The notes under the pieces: model-generated
What the model was told of the DNA's origin: nothing
The model's database searches: none
Seen by the model: the letters and a program-made list of their open reading frames with translations, nothing else
In this document: positions 3,001 through 17,738 of the stretch, piece by piece
Layout: each line of letters begins with the position of its first letter
How positions within the stretch are numbered: the first letter of the stretch is position 1
Made by a program: the position numbers and the translations under genes
Source: Bacteroidota bacterium
GTDB lineage: Bacteria > Bacteroidota > Bacteroidia > UBA7662 > JAIXUI01
Reading direction: 5' to 3'
Assembly (NCBI GenBank): GCA_027484125.1
Contig: JAIXUI010000133.1
Location: forward strand, 1 to 32,692
DNA length: 32,692 nt

Positions 3001-4494
3001 TTTACATTCAATACCACAATCGGAGCAAGAATTAGCTGTTCTGTTGACATTCTTGCAACAAACGATTCTCTCAATCCAATACGTATAGGTAGAGCACCAT
3101 TGACCATAATAGCAAGCAACGACACCCAGGTTGTACCTGGAGCGAATGTTACCTTACAAGCTAGTACCACATTAGGTTCGGTGGTGATTTCGGAAGTATT
3201 CTACGCATCAGGAAGCCAAGGTGCTCAATCGGCGGCCTCCTTCCCAAGTCCAATCACTACTTCTACGAATGCTTCATTTATTGAGATTGCCAATAACTCT
3301 TCAGCCACAATGAACCTAGCTGGTTGGGTTTTAGAATCTGTTGCAAATAATCCCCAAGCTGCCTTTACTTTCAATATGCCCACATCAGCGGTACTTGCTC
3401 CCGGTCAAGTAATGGTCATCAGCAGCCAAACGGGTACAAATGACACCGTAAACAAAGTTTACTTCCTTAATCTCGCCGCAAACCCTTATGCCGCTAACCG
3501 AGCTTGGGGATTAATTCTACGTCAAGGAACTACCATCAGGGATGCGGTTGCATTTAATACCTACGCATTCTTCCCAACTAGTGGAGTAACCGCTTTAGAT
3601 TCAAGAGGATCTGTAAATAACATTGCAGGCCGTGCAGCGATGATTAGAAAGGGATGGGACAACAATGCTTCCACTGATTGGTCTTTGAGTTCAACTGCTG
3701 ACACCTCTAGCATTGGAGTTTTCAATAATGGCTTAAACAGATTTACAACTACCTATTTGTGGACTACAGCTGGAAACACCATTGGAGCTGGAAGTTCTTT
3801 AGTTGTTAACCCAACTTTTAATACTACTTACATCGTTAATGCTTCAAATGGCTTCTGTACTGCTATAGATACTGTAGTAGTGAGCATGACCAGTGTCCAG
3901 AATATCGAAATGATTGCCTTTAACACGCCAACGAATGTTCCTATCGTAGGAGGTACCCCCATCTCTGTGAAGTTGAGAAATATGGGTAATCAACCTGTTT
4001 CTGGCTTTGATTTATTCTTGTCTGACAATGGATTAATGGTTGCTACTGATAACATTACCACCAGTATTGGAGTTAATGGCACTTTTGACCACACCTTCTC
4101 TACGAATTGGAGTCCGGTAATTGCCGGACCGATTAGCCTTAAAGCTTATCATAACTTGGCTAATGACATCAACCGTTCTAATGACACCATCAGTGCAGTT
4201 TATAATTCCATCGTAAGTTCAGCTACTCTTGAAGCTGATCAGTTTAGAATTTATCCAAACCCTGCTAATCACGAGGTTTATTTAGACGCTAAATTCGAAG
4301 GTTCTTCAAGGGTAACCATTCAAGTTAGAGATCTATCAGGTCGTACCCTCATGTTGATTCCATTAGGTACCGTTCATCATGGAATTCATCGCCTTCCTAT
4401 TCAAACTAACATCTTAAACAACGGTCTGTACATTTTCGAAGTTTTGTCAGATGAAAATCCAGTGATGAAAGCGAAAATTCAGATTCTAAAATGA
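1..4494 (+). CDS. Large secreted T9SS cargo protein with GEVED and lamin-tail modules (5' end outside window)
   Basis: Secreted or surface protein; function unknown, probably adhesive or structural. The frame is open to the first base, where it reads TVVVNV like the ends of later modules, so the gene starts upstream; the GTG at 16 is not a credible start. In order: a GEVED-type domain (about nt 30-450, with DWNKDGD and ending GEFEDYPIEIL); an Ig-like stretch (about 450-790); three modules, each a lamin-tail-like domain (SE[IV] start at 856, 2023 and 3190) followed by a Cys-x-x-[RI]-D-T strand, with a CARDB-like domain after it. A type A T9SS sorting domain closes the protein (about 4240-4491, FRIYPNPA then GLYIFEV). 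The next cargo gene follows after 10 nt with no terminator, so they are probably co-transcribed. Secretion route is well supported; the ligand is unknown. Confidence 0.85.
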   Translation, partial: TVVVNVIDYCQVNTDSVPVHIQKVTFTGLSNNSSASITGYEFFNNLSAKVIPASKNNILTITPGFTGTTIPVHFKAWVDWNKDGDLLDAGEEILSSGPDTNMAMANITIPASATLGISRMRVGAFTTAGIGACDTVAVGEFEDYPIEILPSSADTSLPVFISLNAIQPVCTPVSRTIETVWSDNFTVDSVFLDYSLDNGATFNTTAMAYQLANNLWTGTLPSGTQGVKVIYASRAIDHSGNTRTSVPRSFTDGAFIVYAGNDTTVPPTGGAFNRVAKLNRNSLKLSEILVSRAAPGAQVVWPTVLPQTGFADMVEIANTMNVSADLSGMILRTQIVTGGPGGTQTLSYTFPSGSIVPAGQTAVVIYAAGTANLAARVFYTNNNFSVFNANGQFAVALINTDGSVQDAFIANNMVPTGALGLSANDFNGTMAIGANVSAVQRINLMDSDSPADWILVNGQPTTTSLLSYNSGLGIRPASFQWKDLGTNTLVSNTDTLTISAPSNNQYEVVFTVDSSCTVRDTFQVNVSTAFLDLTLDSIALPNSCAFGSNETIRVRIKNIGFSALTLSPTNGLTVVLDVNGVPITQTVSNGTLALNDTIWVTFNGINLTGAAIPVKYTISSFLSVANDFVINNNSRGPVALFSELISVNAGVDQTIAPSANATLTATSSYEKVVISEVMQSRGNAGTQATFPPAINVGGGAGGPDVFEFTNLGPNPVVMSGMQFQALGNGGGPGGGTLVNYTFPAGITLAPDSILTLIAGTGTNDTVGRYYFTNTANNNPINSTAAVGYLLRRGTKILDAVAVNNYTFTVASGVTSDDWTGSVSVANLAGMQRFGSDNNSSSNWRADTVGFVSTIGARNASLVSTPGSTSWNVQGNSTSLGSANSIVVNPSVTTQYVYTLAVNNCTYRDTVTVNVSTSFVDLTPDSVRLGNGACSIGNTVDVELRIRNVGLQTLNASTNPIDVNLTVNGTPTTATINTGSIPANGFSWVTIPAVSLTGSQTFTFNTTIGARISCSVDILATNDSLNPIRIGRAPLTIIASNDTQVVPGANVTLQASTTLGSVVISEVFYASGSQGAQSAASFPSPITTSTNASFIEIANNSSATMNLAGWVLESVANNPQAAFTFNMPTSAVLAPGQVMVISSQTGTNDTVNKVYFLNLAANPYAANRAWGLILRQGTTIRDAVAFNTYAFFPTSGVTALDSRGSVNNIAGRAAMIRKGWDNNASTDWSLSSTADTSSIGVFNNGLNRFTTTYLWTTAGNTIGAGSSLVVNPTFNTTYIVNASNGFCTAIDTVVVSMTSVQNIEMIAFNTPTNVPIVGGTPISVKLRNMGNQPVSGFDLFLSDNGLMVATDNITTSIGVNGTFDHTFSTNWSPVIAGPISLKAYHNLANDINRSNDTISAVYNSIVSSATLEADQFRIYPNPANHEVYLDAKFEGSSRVTIQVRDLSGRTLMLIPLGTVHHGIHRLPIQTNILNNGLYIFEVLSDENPVMKAKIQILK
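856..3900 (+). repeat. Three tandem lamin-tail/CARDB-like coding modules, period 1167 nt
   Basis: The Ser codon opening each lamin-tail-like domain lies at 856, 2023 and 3190, exactly 1167 nt (389 codons) apart. A second anchor, the Cys codon of the C-x-x-[RI]-D-T strand, lies at 1546, 2710 and 3856 (spacing 1164 and 1146 nt). Modules resemble each other as protein but have clearly diverged as DNA, so this is old duplication rather than a recent expansion. The first bases of the window look like the end of one more such strand. Confidence 0.8.
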
Positions 4495-4504
4495 AATCAC
4501 ACCA

Positions 4505-7500
4505 ATGACTAAAAGGCTTCTTGCCGGAATACTTTTAATTCTTCTGTCTTTATCCGGGTACGTGGCTACGGCCAACCATATGATGGGTGGTGACATGTAC
4601 TACACTTATCTCGGTCTAAAACCAGGAGATCCAACCAGGTCGTTGTATCGCTTGTCCGCCGTCATTTACAGAAATTGTAATGGCGGCGGCGCCGCATTAG
4701 AAGGTTCTTATCCTTTTGGAGTTTATAACGCGCTGAATAACACGCTTATACAGACAGTCAACCTTGGACAAGTCTCTTTTGTTCAATTAGGACAATATGC
4801 CCCTGGATGCAGCTATCCCTCTAGTGTTTGTATTCAGGAAGGCATGTATGAAGGAATTATTGAAATCCCCAATAACCTGACAGGCAATCCCGGTTTTCAC
4901 ATTTCGATGTACTCGTGGAGGCGGAATACCAATATCAATAATATCGCAACTAACGGGGGGAATCAAGCAGGACCAGATGGCATGGTTTGGTACTGCTATA
5001 TTCCACCCCATTCTTTTCAAAATAGCTCTCCTCGATTTTTAGCTAAACCTCTCCCCTATATGTGTGTAGGGAGAGAATTTCGATTTAATCACAATGGTTT
5101 TGACCCTGATGGTGACTCCCTTGTCTTCTCATTCGCTTATCCTTATGGCTCGATTGGAATTGGAGCTGTTGCGAATAATACTCCACAAGGGGTAGCTGGT
5201 GGAGTACCAAACAGCCCCGCTCCCATTGGTCTTGCTAATAATCCTCGTCCACCAGGTGCCAATTCGAATACAACTTTCTGGTTCGGTGGCGTGCAATACC
5301 AAGCTGGATACTCATTCCCCAATACCCAAATCAACTCTCTCGGAGGAATGACCATAAACCCTTACACAGGAGAAATTTCAGTAACTCCCACGCAAGCTGG
5401 GAATTTTGTAATTGCCGTGGAGGTTAAAGAGTATCGGGTTGACCGTCTTAATGACACCACCATCTACCTCGGCTCTATTCGAAGAGACTTACAGTTTCTG
5501 GTTGGTGCAGGTTGCGCCAACAATTTTGCGCCGGTGGTTACCAATATCCCTGACAGTTTTGTTGTTGAAGCTGGCACTCCACTTAACTTCAACTTCCTAG
5601 TTTTCGATGCCGAAGGTGATAGTGTTATTATCGACAAACAAGGATCCATCTTCGACGCCTCTGGCGGTTTCCCTCCTCCATATGCCAATCTACCCAATGT
5701 TTCAGGTTTACAAGTTGCGCAAGGCAGTTTTAGCTGGACACCTTCCTGCGCCTACGCCCGTGTTGCTCCCTATTTCTTTTCCATTTTAGTTCGTGACAAT
5801 CAGTGTAATGCCACTCAGAAAACTGTTTTTATTAAAGTTATTCCCAAAGACATTATCAAACCACCTTCCATACAATGTGTGGATGTCTTAAGCAATAATA
5901 GCATAAGATTGAGTTATACCAGAGCTACCGGAAGCGTAACAGATTTTCAACTTTACCGGGTTTTTAGAAGACCTTTTGGCAGTAGTAACTGGACCCAAAT
6001 TGATTCCATCAACAACTGGTCTAGCGGAACTTATACGGATAATACTGCCAGTAATGCATTGACACAGCGGTATGAGTATAGAATGATTTCCGTGAATCAA
6101 TGTAAAGAAGAAGGGCTACCCTCTAATTCAATTAGCTCAATTACTCTCACAGGAAACCGCTACAGCGCTGACCGAGTACAATTGAGATGGACCAGGCCCT
6201 CTTTCCCAACCTCTTTTACCGCCAGAGTCAGAATCCAAAGAAGTGTCAATGGAGGGCCTTTCAATACCATCGATTCCATTCCTTCTACTGACACAGTTTA
6301 CAACGACAAATGGTGTACTTCTTCTGTTACTTATCGCATTTTCTACATTGAAAATGTGACTGGTTGCCAAATAGGTACCATTACACCTAATTCATTTACC
6401 CTTTTCGATACTATCCGACCAAGCCGACCAACAATTCTTGTTGCCAATGTTTCCGGTACAAACAGGGTTGAAGTAACTATTCAAAGTTCTGACTCAAGCG
6501 ATGTAGCCAACTATCGTTTACTCAGGTCCGTGAATGGTGGTCCATTTACTCAGATAAACACCATCAACAATGCCTTTACCGCTACACATATTCTTACAGA
6601 TTTTGATAGCCCTAGCGGTAGAATTAGTACATGTTACAGGGTTATCGCAACCGATATCTGCGGATTAACTAGTGACAGTTCAAATACTCATTGTATTTCA
6701 CAGCTAACGGGTACACCCGGGCAATTAAGCATCAACCTAAGGTGGAGTAACTATACAGGAAGAAGTTTTGCGACTTGGCGTGTTCAGAAATTACAAGGTA
6801 GCAACTGGGTCACTTTACCAGGGACAGGTAACGTACCCGATTCAGTTTACACCGATAACTCTGCTATGATATGCAATCAACTTCAAACCTACAGGGTGAA
6901 GTTTTTTGCTCCAGGTTCTGATACAACTGTTTCACACAGTAGCCAATTGGTAATTGCCCCTTTCGACACGATTCGCCCTGCTACTCCTGTAACCTACAAT
7001 GCCACCGTTTGGAATGCAACTCAGAACAGAGTTTCCTTCTTTACAGTTGCGGATGCTGATGTAAATCGCTATCAAATCCTTGCCTCTGTTAATGGAGGCC
7101 CATACTCCCAAGTTGGGCAGGTTCTAAACCCAACACCAGGGTTACAAACCTTTCAGCATACCGGCATCAATACTACAGCCAATACTTACACTTATCGTAT
7201 TCAAGCAGTAGATACCTGTAACCAAAATCGATCCGACAGTTCTGCCATTCAACGACCTATCCTCCTCTCCGGTAATCCAGGAAACCTTAGTGCATGGCTG
7301 AGTTGGACCCCTTATGTAGGTTATACCCTTTCCAGACATCGGATTCAAAGACTTATCGGTACAACCTGGACTGATATAGGATTTACAGACTCTGTAGCTA
7401 CCAGCTTCAGAGATTCCGGTACTTTAGCTTGCAACGTTACCTACCGTTATCGGTTACTTGCTGAAAAATCCGCAGACACCCTCGGGAATTTCTCAAATGA

Positions 7501-10500
7501 GATTTCTGTAACGCCATTCGACACCTTGCGTCCAACAGTTCCAGTGGTGCTTTTGGCTACCGTTAATAGTGCAAACTCCATTACCTATTCTTTCCTGCGT
7601 TCTACTTCTGCAGATGTGAATCGCTATCAGGTTTTCGGGAGTACCAATAATGGTCCTTGGAACTTACTTGCTACACTCAATCCTCCATTTACCGATACGC
7701 TCACCTTCACTCAAACACCTGTGAATGCAAGAGTCAATACTTTCCGCTATCGGGTAGTGGCCATAGATAGTTGTAACAACAACCGCTCTGACTCAAGCAT
7801 TATTCACAGCCCGGTGAGAGTCACCGGTACAGCTGGTCAATTACGAGCTAATTTATCGTGGCCGCTGTATGTTGGCTTTAACCCTGATTCTCAACGCGTT
7901 CAAAAACTATCCGGCACCAATTGGATTAACCTTGCATCCTTAAATGGTGTTGTTACAAGCTACACAGATAGCATTGGTTTAGCTTGTAACGTTCCTCAAA
8001 CTTATCGACTCTTGAGCTTTAGCCCTGGGGGATTAATTAGCCAATCAAGCGATATTACCGTAACGCCATTCGATACTATTCCACCAACAATTCCTCAAAT
8101 CCGAAACATCTCAATTCCTGCGAACGGTGTTGTTCAAGTAACTTGGAATGCAAGTCCTTCCGTTGATGTAAATAGACACAGTATTTGGAACAGCTTTAAC
8201 GGAGCCGCAGCAACCTCTGTGTTAGACACTTTGGTTAGAGGTGGAAATCTTGGAACTTTTGTTTCCCAGTTCAATAGCAACACCCAACTTAACAATTGTG
8301 TATTTGCCACTGCAGCAGATAGCTGCTCGAATCGAAATTCGCCGAACAGCCCAACATTCTGCGCTATCACACTCAACGGAAGTCCAGGAAACCTTAGAAG
8401 CAACTTGAGTTGGAGTGCCTTTGCAGGATACAACCTCAGCAACTATCAAATTGAAAGACAAAGTCCAGGCAGTAGCAGCTGGGTAAACATCGGATCAGTA
8501 AGTGCAACCACCCTGTCTTTTGTTGATTCAGTAAACACCCCTTGCAATAATACTTTCAACTATCGCATTTCGGGTGTTGAAAACGGAGGAAGTAGAACTA
8601 CCCTTTCTAATACTATTTCAGTAACTCCATTCGATACCATTCGCCCTAATGCTCCATCGGTTCACAATGTTTCAGTATTCAGCTCAGGGAGTGTACAAAT
8701 AACCTTTACTGCTAGCAATGCGAGTGATGTTGACCGTCATTTGGTGTATAGGTCTAATGGTGGTGCATTCCAATTAATTGACACTATTAGACAAGCCGGA
8801 AATGGCGCAAATGTTACTTGGTATGATAGCACTGCTTCTACCGCAAGCGCAGTATCGTATTGTTACTACCTGGTGGCATTAGACAGCTGTCAAAATAATG
8901 CATCAGCTCCATCAGACACTGATTGTACCGTTCGTATTGAAGCAACCGGAAACAGCTGTGCAAGAGTGGCTAACCTCACTTGGAGCGGCTATCAAGGCTG
9001 GAATAATCCGGTAAGCCGTTATGAAATCTATCGTTCAGACAATGGTGGACCATTTAATCTGCAGGCACAAGTAACCGGTACTACTACTGCTTTCAGCCAA
9101 GCAAGCCTTCCTTTAGGGGTTGACTTCTGCTATCAAATCGTAGCGGTACAAGCAACTACAGGAACTACCTCTAATTCGAACATCTTTTGCTTAACCTTAG
9201 GACCTCCTGCTCCACCGGTTGTTACAGCGGCAAGTGTTACTCAAACTAGTGCCGCCGCTGGAGAAGTGCAAGTAAGATGGAGCGTACCCGCCGGTCAAGC
9301 AGTGAGCTCTTTAAGTTTATATTATGCAAGTGGAAGAACTGGAGGAATGACGCTGCTACAAGCCAACATTCCTCCAACTCAAACCAGCTTCACGCATCAA
9401 AACTTGAATACCAAAACAGAGGTACACCGTTACTATCTAACGCTCACTGATACGTGTGCGAATACTTCTGCTCCATCTGATACCAATAGAACCATGGATT
9501 TCTCTATTCAGGGTGGGCAAGTGGTTCATCGGATGAATTGGTCGCCTTACTTAGGCTGGCCGGTACAACGCTATCGCATTCACCGCTTCGATCCAAGTGG
9601 ATTGGTCGTTGTTGACAGCGTTCCCGGTACCGATACCGTTTATACGGCTTTCCCTGCGCCATGTAATCGTGATGTTTCTTATAAGGTAGAAGCGGTTGGG
9701 CCTTTGGGGCAAAGCAGCTTCTCTGATACTGCTCAAACACGCGCTGTTGACATATTACCACCCAATGCGCCAATACTTCGAAATGCAACTGTTATCTCTA
9801 ATAACCGAGTTCAAATAAGCTTCACTAGCGCAGACTCTGTTGACATTTTTGCTTATTCAGTAAGAAGATCAGTCAATGGTGGAAGTTTCAGTCATATCAA
9901 CTTTGTAGCTCACCCAGGTCCCGGCCAGTCTTTAAATTACCTCGATACCACCAATACTTTAAGTGATCAGCTTTGCTATGTGGTAGTCACCTTAGATAGC
10001 TGTTTAAATGCAACTGCTTCCGACACCTTCTGCGTAGTTCAATTGAAGGCAGAAGCGCAACAATTGCAAAACACCATAACCTGGTCAAGATTTAGAGGAT
10101 ATAACCTTGCAAATCAAATACTTGAAAGATGGAACGGGACAGCTTGGGTTACTTTAGCAACTTTATCGCCTGCCGATACCCAATTCGTTCATTCCCCACT
10201 CCCCTGTTCGGTTACTGAACGTTATCGTCTTACAGTGAATGAGGCAGGTGGAAGTAGATTATCTTTATCTGACACCACATGGGCAACACCTTTCGATACA
10301 GTAAAACCAGCTCGCCCAACTATTCGCTGGGCAAGTATTAGAAGCAACACAACTGCCTTATTGAAATGGCAAGCCAATACCGAAGGTGATTTAGCCGGGT
10401 ACCGAATTTACTACCGCTCTGCTAATACTCCTTGGACATTCTTCTCCCAAACCGGAAGAGTTGATTCCATTCAAATCACAGGCCTCAACACCCTCGATTC

Positions 10501-13500
10501 TACTTACAGCTTTGCGCTCGCAGCTTTCGATACCTGTGGAGGCAACCGCTCTGATACAGCATTCTTCCACAGCACCGTCCAATTAAAAGGAACAGCAGGA
10601 AACTTATCCAACGCTTTGAACTGGTCGCCTTATGTAGGATTTGCTGGAATCAGCCAATACTACATCGAGCGATTAACCGGAACAGTATGGAGTGTGTTAG
10701 ATTCTGTCAATGGCTTGACCAATACCTACAATCACCAGAATCTGCCATGCAATCAAGCGGTAGTTTACCGCATTCGAACTATGGCAACCGATGGCTCTAT
10801 CAGCCTTTCTGATACCCTGAGGAGAATTCCATTCGACACCATCCCACCCGTTGCGCCGGTTATTCGAAACTTAACGGTGTTAAACAACTCCAGCTTGATT
10901 GTGAACTGGGATCCTGCAGACCTTCAAGTAGGCACCCATGAAATCTACCTAAAATCATTAAATGGAAGTTGGGTACTATCAGCAACGGTTGGCAATGTAA
11001 GTACGCATACCATCACCGGTCTCAACACCCTAGATTCTGCTTATTGCGTACGCATTCAAGCCCTCGACACTTGTGCATTCAACCGTTCTGCATTTAGTCA
11101 GGAACATTGCAGTGTTCAACTCAATGGTGTTGCGGGCAACCAAAGCAATACCCTTAATTGGACTCCATACGCCGGTTTCCAAAGCTGGAAGTATTACATC
11201 GAACAACCAGGTGGAACAGGATGGATTATTCTTGATTCGGTAGCGTCAAACTTGCAAACCTTTGTTCATCAGCCGCTTGCATGTAACGTTACTCAGACCT
11301 ACCGCATAAGAGCGCTCAACCTGCTAACCGGATTCTCTGCTGTGTCTGACACTTTAATGAGAACTCCATTTGATACTGTAAAGCCAAACCGTGCCATCCT
11401 TCAAGCGGTTTCTGTAACTGGGCCAAACAGCATTCTGGTCTCCTGGCAAGCAGGACCTAGCCCGGATGTTAATCGTTATGAAGTATGGAGGGCTAATGCA
11501 GGAGGAACCTTTACCCTCATCGCTACCGTAACAAACCAGACTTCTTATACCGATAACGTTCCTGCGGCTACTCAAGGTCAGCGTTATCAGTACCAGATTA
11601 TTGCCATCGACTCTTGCAACTTGGCCAATAGATCAGAGCCTTCCTTGCCACATCTTACCATGAACCTGACCAGTCGAACCGGTGCTTGTTCACCGGCTGT
11701 AGTCTTGAACTGGTCTGCTTATCCGTATTTCAATGGTGGGTTAGGAAATTATCAGGTATTACGTTCTCAAAACAATGGCCCATTTACCCCTATCGCCACT
11801 GTTGCAGCAACCGACACCTTCTACACCGACAATGGGGTGAACGTCACTTCCGCTTATTGCTATCGAATTCAGGCCAACAGCCTAGTAGGAAACAATCAGG
11901 CACTTTCTGACAGCACCTGTATCGCTCCGGCAGTTTTTGCGACTACCCCTGCTGGTCCGATGGTTTATACTTCTGTTACAGCAACCGGAATCTCCAACGG
12001 TGCTGCATTTATTGCGTGGACGCCGTACAATCCAGCAATTGATACCCTAGCACGAGGCTATCGCTTGTATCACAGCACCGTTTCCGCTAATGGTCCTTGG
12101 AACTTGATAGGAACTTTCAATCAAGTTACCCCAACTTCCTTTAACCACACCAACATCAACACCCGGACAGGACGTAACTTCTACGCTGTTCGCGTCATCG
12201 ACTCTTGCGGATTTGAAGGAGATTCCAGCGCTGCACACAGCCCAACCTTGTTACAAGTTAACAACGGCAACCTTCGAACTAGTTTATTCTGGACACGATA
12301 TGTCGGTAGCACCCCTTCTTCCTTCTCACTCGAAAAATCACTCAACGGAGGTCCTTTCTTCGTAATTCCGGGTATTCTTCCAACTGACACCAGTTACACC
12401 GATACCCTAATCCGTTGTGGTCAAACCTACACCTATCGCATTCAACAAACCATTGTATCCGCATCAGGAAATACCAATATCAGCCTTTCTGATACGGTTC
12501 AAATCATTGGTAGAGATTCCATAGCACCAGATGTTCCTGTGTTGCTGGAAGCTAGCGTCACCAGAACCGATGTAGTTAATGGAGAAGTAACTCTTCAATA
12601 TACCGGAGCAAACCAAGACAACCGAAACGGTTACCGCATTTATAGGTCAATTAACAGCGGTCCGTTCACGCCAACCTTTGTGGCCAATACCGGAACAGGC
12701 CAATTCTCCTTCACTGATCAGAACCTGAACACTCGCGACAATACCTACCGCTATTTCATCACTTCTACCGATAGTTGTGGCAATGAATCAGATTCATCCG
12801 CTATTCATATCACAACCAACTTAACTGTAACCGCGGTAAATGGTGCCAATGCACTAAGCTGGACCGCTTATATAGGGTTCCCCAACGTAGAGTATGAAAT
12901 TGAACGTAAAACCGCAGGCACTGCGTGGGTAAGCTTGGGTAAATTCCCATCTACCCAACTTGCCTTCGACGACTCGTTGGTAAAATGCGACACCATTTAT
13001 TTCTATCGAATTACCGCATTGAATATCACACCGGTAGTTCCTCCAACCCAAGCCTTTGCTTATTCGGATACAACTTCTGCCAAAGCATTTGAAAGCATTC
13101 CGCCATTGGCGCCAGCCGTTCATCAAGCAACTGTGGAGCAAACCTCCAGAACCCAAGGAAGTGTTCGTGTAAACTGGCAGCCTTCTGCTTCCCGTGACGC
13201 TATGCGCTACATCATTTCTCGCAGTACCAGCGGTGGCACATTTATTCAGGTAGCAGATCTTGGCCTAGTTACTTCATGGCTCGATACCGCAATCAATACC
13301 GTGCAGGAAACCTACACCTACCGCATTGAGGTCATCGACTCCTGCTTCAACCGCAGTACTTCTCCAAGTGTGGACCACACTACCATGGTGCTCAACACCA
13401 CTCCAAGCAATGAGGCTGCAATTCTCAACTGGACGCCTTATGGAGGTTGGACCGTTAACGAGTATGAAATCTGGAGAGACAATGTAAAAGTGGGAAGCGT

Positions 13501-14500
13501 CTCAGGAGCGGTAACCTCTTACACCGACACCAACCTCTTCTGCACCACCACTTATCGCTATACCATTGTAGCGACCCAACTCGCCGACACTGCTCGTTCC
13601 TGGTCTAACCATAGCGATGTACGACCTTTCGACACCCGCGCACCTCAACCAGCAGAAATCATCAGCGTAAGTGTTGACTCTTCCAACAATGGCAAAATTG
13701 TCCTAAAATGGAAGCCTTCACCCAGTTTCGATGTGCAGTTCTATCAAATCCTGAAGCGCGAAAATGGCAGCAATCGCTTGTCGCCGCTCGGTAATGTATT
13801 CGGAAATACAGACTCCATTTATGTGGACAGCCTAAGCTTTAATGTAGGCCAAAACAGCTTCTGCTATTCGCTTATCGCATTCGACTTCTGCGGCAACATC
13901 GGAGACACCTCCAACCAAGGTTGTAGCATCAACCTCGAAGTAGCAGTTGATCCAAACCCATCGGTGGTACAAAATGTACTAACCTGGAATGCTTACGAAC
14001 AGTTTAAAGCCGGTACTGACCGATATGAAATCCTTCGCTCTGCTGATGGAGGGCAAACTTGGGACAACCTGGCCAGCCTGCCAGCCGGACCTGCATCCTT
14101 AACCTATACCGACAATCAACTGCCTGACAGTAGCGGTGCCGCTTGTTATGTAATCATTGGTTATGAAAACACCGGTGGATTTGATGCGATTTCGCGCTCA
14201 GATAAAGTGTGCGTCATTCAACCAGCCAGAATTCAGATCCCTAATGTATTCACAGCGAATGACGACAACCTCAACGATACCTTCGGACCAATCGGAACCT
14301 TCTTCACCGCTTATACGGTAAGCATCTACGACCGTTGGGGCAATGAAGTCTTCCGCTCCAGCCCAGATAGGCTTCGCTGGAATGGACGCCATCAAAACGG
14401 TGGGCCTCTCTCCGAAGGCAATTACACTTACCTCATTGAAGTCACCGACTTGAACGGAAAAACCATCCTGAAAGAAGGTAGAGTAACCCTCTTGAAGTAA
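4505..14500 (+). CDS. Giant FN3-repeat surface protein with T9SS type B (gliding-motility-associated) C-terminal domain
   Basis: A 3331-residue exported protein, probably a surface adhesin; ligand unknown. A signal peptide (MTKRLLAG, then a Leu/Ile-rich core) probably ends at VATA before N24. Residues about 24-110 (NHMMGGDMYYTYLG, then a YRNC motif) match an N-terminal domain I know from other large Bacteroidota T9SS proteins. A cadherin/dystroglycan-like part follows (DPDGDSL; FSWTPSC) to about residue 448. Then come 15 two-FN3 units (about 449-3240), most separated by a PFDT-type linker. The last about 89 residues (IPNVFTANDDNLNDTF, IYDRWGNEVF, W-x-G, GNYTYLIEV) are a type B sorting domain. 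No protease, lectin or enzyme motif was recognised. It is probably the second gene of an operon and is followed by a strong terminator. Confidence 0.9.
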   Translation: MTKRLLAGILLILLSLSGYVATANHMMGGDMYYTYLGLKPGDPTRSLYRLSAVIYRNCNGGGAALEGSYPFGVYNALNNTLIQTVNLGQVSFVQLGQYAPGCSYPSSVCIQEGMYEGIIEIPNNLTGNPGFHISMYSWRRNTNINNIATNGGNQAGPDGMVWYCYIPPHSFQNSSPRFLAKPLPYMCVGREFRFNHNGFDPDGDSLVFSFAYPYGSIGIGAVANNTPQGVAGGVPNSPAPIGLANNPRPPGANSNTTFWFGGVQYQAGYSFPNTQINSLGGMTINPYTGEISVTPTQAGNFVIAVEVKEYRVDRLNDTTIYLGSIRRDLQFLVGAGCANNFAPVVTNIPDSFVVEAGTPLNFNFLVFDAEGDSVIIDKQGSIFDASGGFPPPYANLPNVSGLQVAQGSFSWTPSCAYARVAPYFFSILVRDNQCNATQKTVFIKVIPKDIIKPPSIQCVDVLSNNSIRLSYTRATGSVTDFQLYRVFRRPFGSSNWTQIDSINNWSSGTYTDNTASNALTQRYEYRMISVNQCKEEGLPSNSISSITLTGNRYSADRVQLRWTRPSFPTSFTARVRIQRSVNGGPFNTIDSIPSTDTVYNDKWCTSSVTYRIFYIENVTGCQIGTITPNSFTLFDTIRPSRPTILVANVSGTNRVEVTIQSSDSSDVANYRLLRSVNGGPFTQINTINNAFTATHILTDFDSPSGRISTCYRVIATDICGLTSDSSNTHCISQLTGTPGQLSINLRWSNYTGRSFATWRVQKLQGSNWVTLPGTGNVPDSVYTDNSAMICNQLQTYRVKFFAPGSDTTVSHSSQLVIAPFDTIRPATPVTYNATVWNATQNRVSFFTVADADVNRYQILASVNGGPYSQVGQVLNPTPGLQTFQHTGINTTANTYTYRIQAVDTCNQNRSDSSAIQRPILLSGNPGNLSAWLSWTPYVGYTLSRHRIQRLIGTTWTDIGFTDSVATSFRDSGTLACNVTYRYRLLAEKSADTLGNFSNEISVTPFDTLRPTVPVVLLATVNSANSITYSFLRSTSADVNRYQVFGSTNNGPWNLLATLNPPFTDTLTFTQTPVNARVNTFRYRVVAIDSCNNNRSDSSIIHSPVRVTGTAGQLRANLSWPLYVGFNPDSQRVQKLSGTNWINLASLNGVVTSYTDSIGLACNVPQTYRLLSFSPGGLISQSSDITVTPFDTIPPTIPQIRNISIPANGVVQVTWNASPSVDVNRHSIWNSFNGAAATSVLDTLVRGGNLGTFVSQFNSNTQLNNCVFATAADSCSNRNSPNSPTFCAITLNGSPGNLRSNLSWSAFAGYNLSNYQIERQSPGSSSWVNIGSVSATTLSFVDSVNTPCNNTFNYRISGVENGGSRTTLSNTISVTPFDTIRPNAPSVHNVSVFSSGSVQITFTASNASDVDRHLVYRSNGGAFQLIDTIRQAGNGANVTWYDSTASTASAVSYCYYLVALDSCQNNASAPSDTDCTVRIEATGNSCARVANLTWSGYQGWNNPVSRYEIYRSDNGGPFNLQAQVTGTTTAFSQASLPLGVDFCYQIVAVQATTGTTSNSNIFCLTLGPPAPPVVTAASVTQTSAAAGEVQVRWSVPAGQAVSSLSLYYASGRTGGMTLLQANIPPTQTSFTHQNLNTKTEVHRYYLTLTDTCANTSAPSDTNRTMDFSIQGGQVVHRMNWSPYLGWPVQRYRIHRFDPSGLVVVDSVPGTDTVYTAFPAPCNRDVSYKVEAVGPLGQSSFSDTAQTRAVDILPPNAPILRNATVISNNRVQISFTSADSVDIFAYSVRRSVNGGSFSHINFVAHPGPGQSLNYLDTTNTLSDQLCYVVVTLDSCLNATASDTFCVVQLKAEAQQLQNTITWSRFRGYNLANQILERWNGTAWVTLATLSPADTQFVHSPLPCSVTERYRLTVNEAGGSRLSLSDTTWATPFDTVKPARPTIRWASIRSNTTALLKWQANTEGDLAGYRIYYRSANTPWTFFSQTGRVDSIQITGLNTLDSTYSFALAAFDTCGGNRSDTAFFHSTVQLKGTAGNLSNALNWSPYVGFAGISQYYIERLTGTVWSVLDSVNGLTNTYNHQNLPCNQAVVYRIRTMATDGSISLSDTLRRIPFDTIPPVAPVIRNLTVLNNSSLIVNWDPADLQVGTHEIYLKSLNGSWVLSATVGNVSTHTITGLNTLDSAYCVRIQALDTCAFNRSAFSQEHCSVQLNGVAGNQSNTLNWTPYAGFQSWKYYIEQPGGTGWIILDSVASNLQTFVHQPLACNVTQTYRIRALNLLTGFSAVSDTLMRTPFDTVKPNRAILQAVSVTGPNSILVSWQAGPSPDVNRYEVWRANAGGTFTLIATVTNQTSYTDNVPAATQGQRYQYQIIAIDSCNLANRSEPSLPHLTMNLTSRTGACSPAVVLNWSAYPYFNGGLGNYQVLRSQNNGPFTPIATVAATDTFYTDNGVNVTSAYCYRIQANSLVGNNQALSDSTCIAPAVFATTPAGPMVYTSVTATGISNGAAFIAWTPYNPAIDTLARGYRLYHSTVSANGPWNLIGTFNQVTPTSFNHTNINTRTGRNFYAVRVIDSCGFEGDSSAAHSPTLLQVNNGNLRTSLFWTRYVGSTPSSFSLEKSLNGGPFFVIPGILPTDTSYTDTLIRCGQTYTYRIQQTIVSASGNTNISLSDTVQIIGRDSIAPDVPVLLEASVTRTDVVNGEVTLQYTGANQDNRNGYRIYRSINSGPFTPTFVANTGTGQFSFTDQNLNTRDNTYRYFITSTDSCGNESDSSAIHITTNLTVTAVNGANALSWTAYIGFPNVEYEIERKTAGTAWVSLGKFPSTQLAFDDSLVKCDTIYFYRITALNITPVVPPTQAFAYSDTTSAKAFESIPPLAPAVHQATVEQTSRTQGSVRVNWQPSASRDAMRYIISRSTSGGTFIQVADLGLVTSWLDTAINTVQETYTYRIEVIDSCFNRSTSPSVDHTTMVLNTTPSNEAAILNWTPYGGWTVNEYEIWRDNVKVGSVSGAVTSYTDTNLFCTTTYRYTIVATQLADTARSWSNHSDVRPFDTRAPQPAEIISVSVDSSNNGKIVLKWKPSPSFDVQFYQILKRENGSNRLSPLGNVFGNTDSIYVDSLSFNVGQNSFCYSLIAFDFCGNIGDTSNQGCSINLEVAVDPNPSVVQNVLTWNAYEQFKAGTDRYEILRSADGGQTWDNLASLPAGPASLTYTDNQLPDSSGAACYVIIGYENTGGFDAISRSDKVCVIQPARIQIPNVFTANDDNLNDTFGPIGTFFTAYTVSIYDRWGNEVFRSSPDRLRWNGRHQNGGPLSEGNYTYLIEVTDLNGKTILKEGRVTLLK
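5851..14220 (+). repeat. Fifteen tandem two-FN3 units, about 540-595 nt each
   Basis: Units begin near 5851, 6404, 6960, 7516, 8068, 8629, 9198, 9744, 10291, 10831, 11368, 11932, 12512, 13087 and 13627. In each, FN3 domain A has a DVNRY-like strand, RSxNGGPF and a DSC or DTC loop. Domain B has NLSW, GF or GY, IER, a Cys-Asn just before strand F, and SLSDT. The linker is most often PFDTIRP. All 15 A domains have the loop Cys (NQC in unit 1); 12 of 15 B domains have the Cys before strand F, the exceptions being units 6, 11 and 15. Diverged as DNA, so assembly collapse is not an obvious risk. Confidence 0.85.
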
Positions 14501-14789: not shown

Positions 14790-17738
14790 ATGTTTCTCCC
14801 CTGTTTCTCTTGGTTTAGCCTCAACTTCGGCACTTTATCGGTAGAGCGCCTGCTTGAAGAAGCAGCCAGGCGCGGCTATCGGAGGCTGGCGTTGGCAGAT
14901 TTAAACAACACCTCCGGCATTCCTGACTTTTTGCGCCTGGCACCTAAATACGGCATTCAACCCGCTGCAGGCATCACCTTCGCCGAAGGCAATCAATTGC
15001 GCTACATCGCACTGGCAACCAACCTAGAAGCTTATGCAGAAATGAATGCTCAGCTATCGGAACAACTGAAGACAGGGCAACCACCAAGGCGACGAGCCGA
15101 GGGTCTGCAACATGCCCGAATTATTTATCCCACCGCCAGTTATGGCGGGTGGCGCCTCAGACCGAATGAATTCGTAGGCGTTAGTCTCGATGAACTCAGA
15201 TACTGGCAAGTACGTAGAAAAGGGCTTCCCGAAGACAGCCTCGTATTCACTCAACCCGTTTTGGGGCTAGGCCCTGCCGACTACAACACCCATCGACTGT
15301 TGCGCGCCATCGACCACAATATCCTGCTCAGCAGGCAACAACCCGGAAGCTTGGCGCCTCGTTCGTGGCTCATGCCCGAACCTGATCAACTCAGGGAAGC
15401 GGCCTCAAAAGCACCTGACATCTTTCGAAGAACCCGAACCCTCTTCGAAAGTTGCCAATTAGACCTCGGCTTTGGGCAACCCAAAAACAAGCACCACCTC
15501 GGCCCTAATGCCGAACATGACCGCGAGCTGCTGAGAAAAGAAGCGGAAGCAGGCGCCATCAACCGATACGGCCATTGCTCCGGTGAAGTTCAACAACGAC
15601 TAGAACATGAACTAAAACTCATTGATTCGCTGGGATTTACGGCCTACTTCCTCATCTGCTGGGACATGCTCCGGTATGCACGCAGTAAAGGCTACTTCTA
15701 CGTAGGACGAGGCTCTGGAGCCAACAGCATCGTGGCTTACTGCCTCTACATCACCAATGTGGACCCACTCGAGCTCGACCTTTTTTTCGAACGATTCATC
15801 AACCCTAACCGGAGTTCTCCGCCCGATTTCGATATCGACTTTTCATGGAAAGACCGCGACGATATCCTCCAGTATTTGTTCAACCGCTATGGTGAAGCGC
15901 ATGTGCGCTTGCTTGGCACTTATACCACTTATCAACAGCAAGGTGTACTCCGTGAACTCGGTAAAGTATATGGCCTACCGCGTCAGGAAATAGAAGAGCT
16001 CCCGCGCTGGATGCACGAGCCGCCTCCGCAGGATAACAAACTCACTACCTCGCTTATACGCTACGCCAAGCGGCTGCTCGATACGCCTGCACACTTATCC
16101 ATTCACGCTGGGGGGGTCTTAATTGCAGAAAAAACCATGCACCACTACTCCGGAACCTTCTGGCCACCCAAAGGATTTCCGGTCACGCAATGCTCTATGT
16201 TGGAAGCCGAAGACCTTGGCCTTTACAAATTCGACATCCTCAGTCAGCGCGGATTAGGACACATCCGGGATGCTGTGGACCTGATTCAGGAAAACAGAAA
16301 ACAAGGGGTCAATATTCATGACATTCCCGGCTTCAAACGCGATCCGGCCATAAAAGCTTTAATAAGAGAAGGCCATACCCTCGGCTGCTTTTATGTAGAA
16401 TCACCCGCCATGCGCATGCTCTTGAAGAAGCTAAGGGCGGAAGAATACCCGGATTTGGTTGCAGCGAGCTCTATCATACGTCCTGGCGTAGCCCGTTCTG
16501 GCATGATGAAAGAATACATCCTCCGATTTCGAATGCCGGAACGACGCAAACAAGCACACCCCGAATTAATGAAACTGCTGCCAGACACCTTTGGCATCAT
16601 GGTGTATCAGGAAGATGTGATTCGGGTAGCGCACCACTTTGCCGGTATGAGCCTTGCCGACGCCGATGTACTAAGGCGTGGCATGTCGGGGAAGTTTAGG
16701 TCGCGGGAAGAATTTGCCCGCGTGCGCGAAGTCTTCTTCGAAGGCTGCCAAAAACAAGGTCATTCTGAATCATTGAGCAAAGAAGTATGGTTTCAGATTG
16801 AAAGTTTTGCTAGCTACTCTTTCTCCAAAGGCCATTCCGCCTCCTTTGCCGTTGAAAGCTTCCAAAGTTTATGGCTGAAAGCCCATTATCCACTTGAGTT
16901 TATGACGGCTGTCATCAACAACTTCGGCGGCTTTTACCGAACCGAATACTACATCCACGAGGCAAGACGCGCCGGCGCTCAAATAGAAGCGCCTTGTGTT
17001 AATCACTCCGGCCTGTTATCTCGCCTTCAAGGCCGTACCCTGTGGATCGGGCTCACCCATTTACAAGGGTTAGAGTCTGCATCCGTGGAAAAAATCCTAG
17101 TAGCCAGAAACTTGCACGGCTCCTTTCATTCGCTGGAAGATTTCCTGACACGAACCGGGCTATCCATCGAACAAACAAGAATCCTCATCCGCATAGGCGC
17201 TTTTCGGTTTACCGGCCATAGCCGACAGAACCTGCATTGGGAGCTATTCGGTTTGGCCGGGCAAGCTCAACCCGCCAACATCGCCGACTCCTCCACCCTA
17301 TTCGCCATGCCTGCCGAACAGTTTAACTTGCCCCCGCTCGATGACACACCCACGGCTCGCGCATTCGACGAGCTTGAACTCCTCGGTTTCACCTTAAGCA
17401 GCCCATTTCTACTCGTGCCACCGGAAGCCTTGAACGACAGCGGCGCCCGTGCCAAACAATTTAAGGAGATGTTAGGGCAATCTATCTCTATACTTGGCTA
17501 TCTCGTGACAGTGAAAAGCACACGCACCATCACTAAAACCCTCATGGGCTTCGGCACCTTCCTCGACCCTGATGGCGACTGGATAGACACGGTCCATTTT
17601 CCCGACACTTATTTGCAGCACCCCTTTAGAGGCAGCGGGTGCTATCGGATTAAAGGGAAGGTCACCGAAGAGTTTGGTTTTTTTAGTGTTGAAGTAGATT
17701 TCATGGAAAAACTTCCGGTAAGAAAACGGTGGGATTAG
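14790..17738 (+). CDS. DNA polymerase III alpha-subunit homologue, short DnaE2-like (error-prone type) form
   Basis: C-family DNA polymerase, 982 residues, shorter than replicative DnaE (about 1150 or more). An N-terminal PHP domain (about 1-200; FSLNFGTLS, LADLNNTSG) lacks the metal-binding His pattern, so it should have no exonuclease activity. The polymerase core has GRGSGANSIVAY, PDFDIDF at 345-351 (catalytic D348 and D350 by analogy with E. coli D401/D403) and KFD with the third Asp at D482. HhH-like segments follow, then a C-terminal OB-fold (about 895-975; MGFGTF, HFP, FRGSG). The layout fits the second DnaE of many Bacteroidota, related to DnaE2/ImuC, a translesion polymerase that normally works with ImuB. 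No imuA, imuB, lexA or dinB is present here, so that role is inferred. Start ATG, no Shine-Dalgarno. It could be a differently specialised DnaE. Confidence 0.85.
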   Translation: MFLPCFSWFSLNFGTLSVERLLEEAARRGYRRLALADLNNTSGIPDFLRLAPKYGIQPAAGITFAEGNQLRYIALATNLEAYAEMNAQLSEQLKTGQPPRRRAEGLQHARIIYPTASYGGWRLRPNEFVGVSLDELRYWQVRRKGLPEDSLVFTQPVLGLGPADYNTHRLLRAIDHNILLSRQQPGSLAPRSWLMPEPDQLREAASKAPDIFRRTRTLFESCQLDLGFGQPKNKHHLGPNAEHDRELLRKEAEAGAINRYGHCSGEVQQRLEHELKLIDSLGFTAYFLICWDMLRYARSKGYFYVGRGSGANSIVAYCLYITNVDPLELDLFFERFINPNRSSPPDFDIDFSWKDRDDILQYLFNRYGEAHVRLLGTYTTYQQQGVLRELGKVYGLPRQEIEELPRWMHEPPPQDNKLTTSLIRYAKRLLDTPAHLSIHAGGVLIAEKTMHHYSGTFWPPKGFPVTQCSMLEAEDLGLYKFDILSQRGLGHIRDAVDLIQENRKQGVNIHDIPGFKRDPAIKALIREGHTLGCFYVESPAMRMLLKKLRAEEYPDLVAASSIIRPGVARSGMMKEYILRFRMPERRKQAHPELMKLLPDTFGIMVYQEDVIRVAHHFAGMSLADADVLRRGMSGKFRSREEFARVREVFFEGCQKQGHSESLSKEVWFQIESFASYSFSKGHSASFAVESFQSLWLKAHYPLEFMTAVINNFGGFYRTEYYIHEARRAGAQIEAPCVNHSGLLSRLQGRTLWIGLTHLQGLESASVEKILVARNLHGSFHSLEDFLTRTGLSIEQTRILIRIGAFRFTGHSRQNLHWELFGLAGQAQPANIADSSTLFAMPAEQFNLPPLDDTPTARAFDELELLGFTLSSPFLLVPPEALNDSGARAKQFKEMLGQSISILGYLVTVKSTRTITKTLMGFGTFLDPDGDWIDTVHFPDTYLQHPFRGSGCYRIKGKVTEEFGFFSVEVDFMEKLPVRKRWD

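What the first reader, a model, noticed from the sequence alone, without database searches (positions are those of the whole stretch)
5851..14220. Paired cysteines that appear and vanish together in the FN3 array
Seen: in domain A, a Cys in strand F (as in CYRV or CYYL) and a Cys in strand G (as in THC, TDC or EHC) are both present in units 2, 5, 6, 8, 10 and 15 and both absent in the other nine. In domain B the same F/G pair is present only in units 6, 11 and 15. I found no domain with just one of the two; unit 1 domain B has an extra Cys, but in the loop. Known: strands F and G are neighbours in FN3. Inference: a modular F-G disulfide added to some domains, which would tune stiffness along the fibre.
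Basis: partly seen in the sequence, partly recalled or inferred. Interest (0 to 1): 0.5.

Follow-up and report, generated by a model that had tools for sequence, protein, structure and literature searches.

The report
Disulfide-chained giant bacterial surface fibre
The paired cysteines are real and probably form an optional bond inside single modules of a giant secreted protein, but the stronger pattern nearby is a cysteine pair at every second module boundary that looks like a staple joining each module to the next.

Summary
The gene (window 4505-14500) encodes a 3331-residue type IX-secreted protein with 15 A+B pairs of FN3 domains. In detail: strand F and strand G cysteines are both present in A2, A5, A6, A8, A10, A15, B6, B11, B15 and both absent in the other 21 domains. 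In 30 array fragments, window included, the two change together (74 both, 272 neither, 5 single of 351 domains). Predicted strands put them opposite each other, so an optional F-G disulfide is likely. This fits an interdomain disulfide at each B-to-A junction; pairing all sites assigns 56 of 57 cysteines. PKD arrays of related secreted proteins show the same n to n+1 chain: first domains lack the FG cysteine, and last domains keep the AB cysteine when an FN3 domain follows and mostly lack it before the sorting tail. No bond was observed directly, no distance could be measured, and known disulfide-forming enzymes were not found in this genome.

The parts
4505..14500 (+). Giant type IX-secreted protein, 3331 aa: N-terminal domain, Ig/HYR-like domain, 15 x (A+B) FN3, CHU_C sorting domain
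   Evidence: CHU_C E 3e-15 and TIGR04131 E 2.5e-11
5849..14230 (+). FN3 array A1-B15 (residues 449-3242)
14231..14497 (+). C-terminal T9SS type B sorting domain (residues 3243-3331)
6632..6694 (+). F-G Cys pair in A2 (C710, C730)
8297..8362 (+). F-G Cys pair in A5 (C1265, C1286)
8861..8926 (+). F-G Cys pair in A6 (C1453, C1474)
   Evidence: both in predicted strands
9128..9190 (+). F-G Cys pair in B6 (C1542, C1562)
   Evidence: predicted strand ranges mirror about the pair
9974..10033 (+). F-G Cys pair in A8 (C1824, C1843)
11045..11110 (+). F-G Cys pair in A10 (C2181, C2202)
11858..11920 (+). F-G Cys pair in B11 (C2452, C2472)
13862..13924 (+). F-G Cys pair in A15 (C3120, C3140)
14144..14212 (+). 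F-G Cys pair in B15 (C3214, C3236); terminal B, no pole Cys
6314..6661 (+). Inferred staple B1 EF loop C604 - A2 FG loop C719
   Evidence: both invariant in 11 aligned sequences
6872..7219 (+). Inferred staple B2 EF C790 - A3 FG C905
7430..7774 (+). Inferred staple B3 EF C976 - A4 FG C1090
7985..8326 (+). Inferred staple B4 EF C1161 - A5 FG C1274
8543..8890 (+). Inferred staple B5 EF C1347 - A6 FG C1462
   Evidence: both between predicted strands
8957..9457 (+). Inferred staple B6 AB turn C1485 - A7 FG C1651 (moved donor site)
   Evidence: C1485 is the last residue of predicted strand A
9662..10003 (+). Inferred staple B7 EF C1720 - A8 FG C1833
10205..10537 (+). Inferred staple B8 EF C1901 - A9 FG C2011
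10748..11074 (+). Inferred staple B9 EF C2082 - A10 FG C2190
11282..11617 (+). Inferred staple B10 EF C2260 - A11 FG C2371
11687..12208 (+). Inferred staple B11 AB turn C2395 - A12 FG C2568 (moved donor site)
12416..12778 (+). Inferred staple B12 EF C2638 - A13 FG C2758
12986..13345 (+). Inferred staple B13 EF C2828 - A14 FG C2947
13541..13891 (+). Inferred staple B14 EF C3013 - A15 FG C3129
5747..6103 (+). Inferred staple from the Ig/HYR-like domain (EF region, C415) to A1 FG C533
   Evidence: Both invariant in 11 aligned sequences; C415 between two predicted strands
5876..6367 (+). Inferred A1 strand-A C458 - B1 FG C621 pair; weakest assignment
   Evidence: Such Cys co-occur, both missing in L115; C458 lies mid strand A, not at the pole
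5513..5806 (+). Inferred pair C337 (linker after N-terminal domain) - C434 (FG loop of Ig/HYR-like domain)
   Evidence: Both invariant in 11 aligned sequences

Best explanation
The array carries two kinds of inferred disulfide. (2) A near-obligatory interdomain staple: a Cys at the C-terminal pole of a B domain (EF loop in most, AB turn in B6 and B11) bonds to the FG-loop Cys at the N-terminal pole of the next A domain. Staples at the B-to-A junctions, together with almost linker-free A-to-B joints, would give a stiff, stretch-resistant fibre about 30 domains long, secreted by the type IX system. Shown: positions, co-occurrence, moved donor sites, start and end behaviour. Inferred: that the thiols are oxidised, and the mechanical consequence.
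For: Junctions in 30 array fragments: Cys of n and FG Cys of n+1 both present 172, both absent 153, one-sided 7 of 332; 7 more skipped for gaps or truncation. Of the 172, 153 are B-to-A with the Cys at the pole; 19 (17 A-to-B, 2 A-to-A) use a strand-A Cys. Nine fragments fetched afterwards: 87 both, 84 neither, 0 one-sided of 171; 8 of the 9 come from two genera already sampled, only L115 from a new one. B followed by another FN3 has exactly one pole Cys in 238 of 238; terminal B has none in 27 of 28, the exception (L056) having an extra Cys just behind (related fragments included). The donor moves from EF to AB, and the linker motif [DE][TSINLVQ]xxP, chosen after looking, goes with it: 104 of 130 EF, 3 of 23 AB, p 1e-9. 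Pairing assigns 56 of 57 Cys. Model 1 (pLDDT 88.5) puts EF and FG Cys between strands, the AB Cys at the end of strand A, F and G Cys in strands. PKD arrays: AB_n/FG_n+1 345 both, 3 AB only, 1 neither of 349; within one domain 388 both, 20 AB only, 10 FG only of 418; fully covered first PKDs near the N-terminus lack FG in 12 of 13 (7 of the 12 had suggested the idea). Last PKDs followed at once by an FN3 A domain with FG Cys keep AB in 11 of 11; directly before a sorting tail AB is absent in 6 of 7 fully covered.
Against: No bond, distance or mass was measured: no coordinates are given, and pTM is 0.49 and 0.54, so domain-domain placement is not informative. VKOR, DsbB and Thioredoxin_4 were not found in this genome; its only DSBA-family match looks cytosolic, no signal peptide seen. 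VKOR was found in 2 of 14 and Thioredoxin_4 in 1 of 14 genomes with such arrays. Orphan Cys exist: C164 here, EF-region Cys in A domains of L103 (two), L106 and L054, B col 21 in L099-type arrays, single G-strand Cys. PKD exceptions: L128 first domain has both Cys (with an extra Cys before it), L139 last domain keeps AB before a Cys-free tail, three one-sided pairs. C458 lies mid strand A. Much of the FN3 junction statistic follows from A and B being two lineages; the informative cases are terminal Bs, moved donors, A1-B1, the A-A-A array L049 and PKD array ends.
Confidence: 0.8

Rival explanations
1. Only the F-G pair is a disulfide, added here and there; the invariant FG-loop and pole cysteines are free thiols or serve another purpose such as metal binding or adduct formation.
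For: F-G co-occurrence is strong by itself. VKOR and DsbB were not found in this genome, VKOR in only 2 of 14.
Against: Free thiols would not have to match between neighbouring domains, move from EF to AB, or vanish from the terminal B. PKD array ends show the same n to n+1 offset.
Confidence: 0.1
2. The pole and FG-loop cysteines cross-link neighbouring molecules side by side in a bundle rather than consecutive domains of one chain.
For: Co-occurrence data do not separate intra- from intermolecular bonds.
Against: The missing FG Cys in first PKDs and the missing pole Cys in terminal domains fit an n to n+1 offset within one chain; a bundle would need an exact one-domain stagger (inference).
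Confidence: 0.06
3. The co-occurrence is only shared ancestry of recently copied domains, with no bond implied.
For: The F-G state is clustered on the trees (30 changes against a shuffled mean of 43 for A, 11 against 24 for B), and positions such as the last B recur across species.
Against: F, G and the joint state need nearly the same number of changes. In the aligned homologue of A6/B6 in L046 both F-G pairs are gone while the FG Cys and the AB Cys remain. L102, L116 and L117 show G only, both, and neither at one site.
Confidence: 0.04

Closest known systems
Fibronectin type III domain arrays (fibronectin, titin, contactins; Pfam PF00041)
   Same: FN3 fold and tandem arrangement; Foldseek matches the two models to titin, receptor phosphatases, contactins and fibronectin; Pfam fn3 rings once in the array, over its cut-off.
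   Different: Two alternating FN3 types with cysteines matched across junctions. Human fibronectin FN3 domains lack such bonds (recalled).
Cross-linked Gram-positive adhesins, e.g. the Mobiluncus mulieris giant adhesin (PMC10619420, passages read)
   Same: Giant surface protein of repeated beta-sandwich domains hardened by covalent cross-links.
   Different: There the bonds described are inside single domains (ester, isopeptide, disulfide); here the main inferred bond joins consecutive domains.
Engineered FIII9-FIII10 fibronectin pair (Altroff et al. 2004; not held, recalled; only its reference entry seen)
   Same: As I recall, an artificial disulfide between consecutive FN3 domains fixes their tilt.
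   Different: Engineered single pair, against a natural repeated one.
Secreted Bacteroidota proteins with Ig-like repeats: cytophagalysin (PMC11674741, passages read)
   Same: Beta-sandwich repeats in a secreted protein; one predicted bond there joins the catalytic domain to the next domain.
   Different: No chain of bonds at successive junctions is described in the passages read.
Grappling hook protein A of Aureispira (PDB 9fly, 9flw)
   Same: Giant bacterial surface protein; one fragment appears in each Foldseek list.
   Different: Not among the sequence matches shown (60 of 80); its cysteines were not examined.

Membership tests
FN3 domain (PF00041) | Profile match over the curated cut-off | tested here: met
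   One match in the array, 26.8 bits against cut-off 25; no other repeat was listed. Pfam scan of the protein lists CHU_C, GH85_C and, below cut-off, FlgD_ig.
FN3 domain (PF00041) | Seven-stranded FN3 beta sandwich | tested here: met
   AF2 mean pLDDT 88.5, beta strands only; Foldseek top hits are FN3/Ig chains. Six of the 30 domains modelled there; A1, B1 and A2.
T9SS type B secreted protein | C-terminal CHU_C / TIGR04131 sorting domain | tested here: met
Fibrillar adhesin | Long stalk of repeats | tested here: met
   30 FN3 domains.
Fibrillar adhesin | Adhesive domain and surface display | not tested
   The N-terminal domain (residues 25-336) was not identified; no binding data.
FN3 with an F-G disulfide (as in growth hormone receptor, recalled) | Cys in strands F and G directly opposite | tested here: inconclusive
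   Both Cys in predicted strands and mirrored ranges in B6 and A8, partly in A6; no coordinates, so no distance.
Interdomain disulfide between consecutive domains | Sulfur-sulfur bond across the junction | not testable with these tools
   Only co-occurrence and predicted positions.
Dsb-type oxidative folding in the window's genome | DsbA with DsbB or VKOR partner | tested here: not met
   No VKOR or DsbB match; one DSBA-family protein without visible signal peptide.

The most novel reading that the evidence does not exclude
Giant type IX-secreted fibres of many Bacteroidota are covalent daisy chains: successive beta-sandwich domains of different families (PKD, Ig/HYR-like, FN3) are each bonded to the next by one disulfide from an AB or EF loop at the C-terminal pole to the following FG loop, with a starter domain lacking the FG Cys and a terminator lacking the pole Cys, formed in cells most of which show no VKOR.
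Probability: 0.6. Interest if true: 0.75.

Novelty: new variant of a known kind. Interest (0 to 1): 0.6.

Why it matters
Covalently hardened adhesins are known mainly from Gram-positive bacteria, with bonds inside single domains (PMC10619420, passages; otherwise recalled). A repeated, position-coded bond between consecutive domains would be a different way to make a long stiff bacterial fibre, would correct the natural assumption that the conserved PKD cysteine pair is intradomain, and would raise the question of what oxidises these proteins: VKOR was found in 2 of 14 genomes examined, and neither VKOR nor DsbB in the window's genome. The rule makes exact predictions that one small recombinant fragment can test.

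Tried and rejected
Cys-Cys distances: not obtainable, no coordinate file is given. A first alignment of overlapping shifted repeats was useless because MAFFT aligned identical stretches; non-overlapping rows replaced it. A phylum-wide search found only the window's own genome, 1 of 395 at E 1e-15. Intradomain pairing of A1 C458 with C533 was considered: it fits their height in the domain but leaves C415 and C621 without partners. Intradomain pairing of the PKD AB and FG Cys was rejected on the array ends. A Fisher test on the PKD tables says little because almost all cells are double positive. Papers: no paper in the held library has both 'interdomain disulfide' and 'fibronectin type III'; the listed titles and abstracts showed no such chain, but several lists were capped (25 of 1,150; 12 of 18,988) and most subscription journals are not held. 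Rows left out: L047, L048 (near-copies of L046), L105 (same genus as L050), and L056 ORF 1 (one hit). L131 and L149 had at most 2 PKD hits and were dropped. Loci L108-L111 were not analysed. In one search a Cys up to 10 residues behind a domain hit counted as FG; it did not.

Full report
What is there. The ORF at 4505-14500 (+) encodes 3331 residues ending in a T9SS type B sorting domain (CHU_C E 3e-15; TIGR04131 E 2.5e-11). Between an N-terminal domain plus an Ig/HYR-like domain and that tail lie 15 A+B units of FN3 domains, residues 449-3242. Pfam fn3 itself is listed only once in the array, over its cut-off, but AlphaFold2 gives confident beta sandwiches (mean pLDDT 88.5) and Foldseek's best hits are FN3/Ig chains. 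Array-like matches occur in 47 of 80 relatives at E 1e-10, 16 of 295 genomes of the class at E 1e-25 and 1 of 395 of the phylum at E 1e-15. The named relatives are Bacteroidetes MAGs and one record titled only uncultured bacterium.

The observation. Fisher p is 2.0e-4 for A and 2.2e-3 for B in the window alone. In 30 array fragments, window included, 351 domains gave 74 both, 272 neither and 5 single; 9 fragments fetched later gave 26, 150 and 2 of 178. On trees built from Cys-masked sequences the two sites and their joint state need almost the same number of changes (A: 30, 29, 31; B: 11, 14, 14). At one site in three related genomes the states are G only (L102), both (L116) and neither (L117), which looks like stepwise change. 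The other condition, distance, could not be tested: no coordinates are returned. Indirectly, in B6 the predicted strand F (model residues 254-264) and strand G (270-273, 276-280) mirror each other about the Cys pair 257/277; the same holds in A8 and partly in A6.

Every one of the 15 A domains has a Cys at the start of the FG loop (two residues after predicted strand F in the A domains modelled); in 30 fragments this Cys is in 180 of 181 A domains, and the exception (L056 A1) has one just behind the aligned part. Twelve B domains of the window have a Cys in the EF loop, B6 and B11 have one at the AB turn instead, and B15, followed by the sorting domain, has neither. In FN3 topology (established knowledge) AB and EF loops lie at the C-terminal pole and the FG loop at the N-terminal pole, so these Cys face each other across the B-to-A junction. 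Across 30 fragments the Cys of n and the FG Cys of n+1 were both present at 172, both absent at 153 and one-sided at 7 of 332 junctions, 7 further junctions being skipped. Of the 172, 153 are B-to-A junctions with a pole Cys, 17 are A-to-B and 2 A-to-A junctions with a strand-A Cys. Of the 7, three are B domains with a second Cys at column 24 that may pair inside the domain, and four are A domains with an unexplained Cys in the EF region (L103 twice, L106, L054). Later fragments gave 87, 84 and 0 of 171, but 8 of those 9 fragments come from two genera already sampled. B domains followed by another FN3 carry exactly one pole Cys in 238 of 238 cases; terminal B domains carry none in 27 of 28, and the exception has an extra Cys just behind it. 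These counts include related genomes. The linker motif changes with the donor site (104 of 130 EF, 3 of 23 AB; motif chosen after looking at linkers). The F-G pair in B domains never occurs with the EF donor: 0 of 198, against 39 of 68 B domains without it.

The start of the array follows the same idea. In 11 aligned sequences C102, C187, C337, C415, C434, C458, C533, C604, C621 and C719 are invariant. The inferred pairs C337-C434, C415-C533 and C604-C719 follow the rule; C458-C621 is the weakest, because C458 lies in mid strand A, yet an A-domain Cys at that place and an FG Cys in the next B go together (21 both, 0 A only, 7 B only, 237 neither; by the domain tables the 7 would be three B domains with the column 24 Cys and four counted only for a Cys right behind the domain), and in L115 both are missing. 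C58 and C109 are both present in 8 and both absent in 3 of the 11. With C58-C109 and C102-C187, 56 of 57 Cys are assigned; only C164 is left.

A test outside FN3. Related T9SS proteins carry PKD arrays in which cysteines sit almost only at two columns, 14 (AB loop) and 68 (FG loop): 423 and 394 occurrences. In 30 proteins with at least four PKD hits, AB_n and FG_n+1 were both present at 345, AB only at 3 and neither at 1 of 349 contiguous pairs, while within one domain 388 had both, 20 AB only and 10 FG only of 418. Among proteins whose array begins near the N-terminus, the first PKD has the AB but not the FG Cys in 12 of 13 fully covered cases; 7 of those 12 had suggested the idea and 5 were new. 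The exception, L128, has an additional Cys before the domain. At the other end, the last PKD is followed at once by an FN3 A domain with the FG Cys in 11 proteins, and all 11 keep the AB Cys; directly before a sorting tail the AB Cys is absent in 6 of 7 fully covered last PKDs (L133, L137, L142, L145, L146, L150), the exception being L139; five further last PKDs with FG only were partly covered (L132, L134, L138, L143, L148), L140 and L144 lack AB before another domain, and L134 ORF 1, L135, L136, L141 and L147 keep AB before other Cys-bearing sequence that was not analysed. This start/end signature is what an n to n+1 bond predicts and what an intradomain bond does not.

Mechanism. Shown: positions, co-occurrence, moved donor, start and end behaviour. 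Inferred: oxidation to disulfides, and that A-to-B joints are stiff because strand G of A runs almost directly into strand A of B (model of A6-B6) while the proline-bearing B-to-A linkers are held by the staple. A weak point is the oxidant: no VKOR, DsbB or Thioredoxin_4 in the window's genome and only one DSBA-family protein, apparently cytosolic; VKOR in 2 of 14 and Thioredoxin_4 in 1 of 14 genomes with such arrays; DsbB was sought only in the window's genome. Oxidation outside the cell or an unknown enzyme is possible.

Comparison. The giant Mobiluncus adhesin is hardened by bonds inside domains (PMC10619420, passages). Cytophagalysin is predicted to have one bond between its catalytic domain and the next (PMC11674741, passages). 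An engineered FIII9-FIII10 disulfide is recalled from Altroff et al. 2004, which is not held. I found no description of a natural chain of bonds between consecutive FN3 or PKD domains in the listings, which cover an open-licence library and are partly capped. PDB sequence searches with the FN3 and PKD arrays showed, in the few alignments printed, no counterpart of the cysteine pattern.

Verdict. Observation confirmed; interpretation partly supported; the larger feature is the inferred interdomain staple, a new variant of covalently hardened fibres.

Noticed in passing
window 1-4494 (+): Upstream partial ORF (1497 aa in the window) with three LTD stretches, a GEVED domain and a Por_Secre_tail, so another type IX-secreted protein lies next to this one.
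   Followed up: no
window 14790-17738 (+): Downstream ORF is a DNA polymerase III alpha/error-prone-like polymerase of 982 aa.
   Followed up: no
L059, L122-L130, L132-L148, L150: PKD arrays of related secreted proteins carry cysteines almost only at two columns, arranged as an n to n+1 chain.
   Followed up: partly
L056 (ORF 0): Here all A-to-B and B-to-A junctions detected carry the matched cysteines, not only B-to-A.
   Followed up: partly
L099, L114, L119, L120, L121: A second matched pair near one B-to-A junction: a Cys at the end of B and one at column 79 of the next A.
   Followed up: no
window 5513-5845 (+); L096, L098, L099, L101, L102, L103: In the Ig/HYR-like domain two further Cys (LCF/ICF and FCW contexts; LCI and FCW in L103) are both present in these 6 of 11 aligned sequences and both absent in 5 including the window.
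   Followed up: no
genome G000 and 13 relatives: VKOR found in 2 of 14 and Thioredoxin_4 in 1 of 14 genomes although their secreted proteins carry many paired cysteines; DsbB absent in G000, not sought elsewhere.
   Followed up: partly
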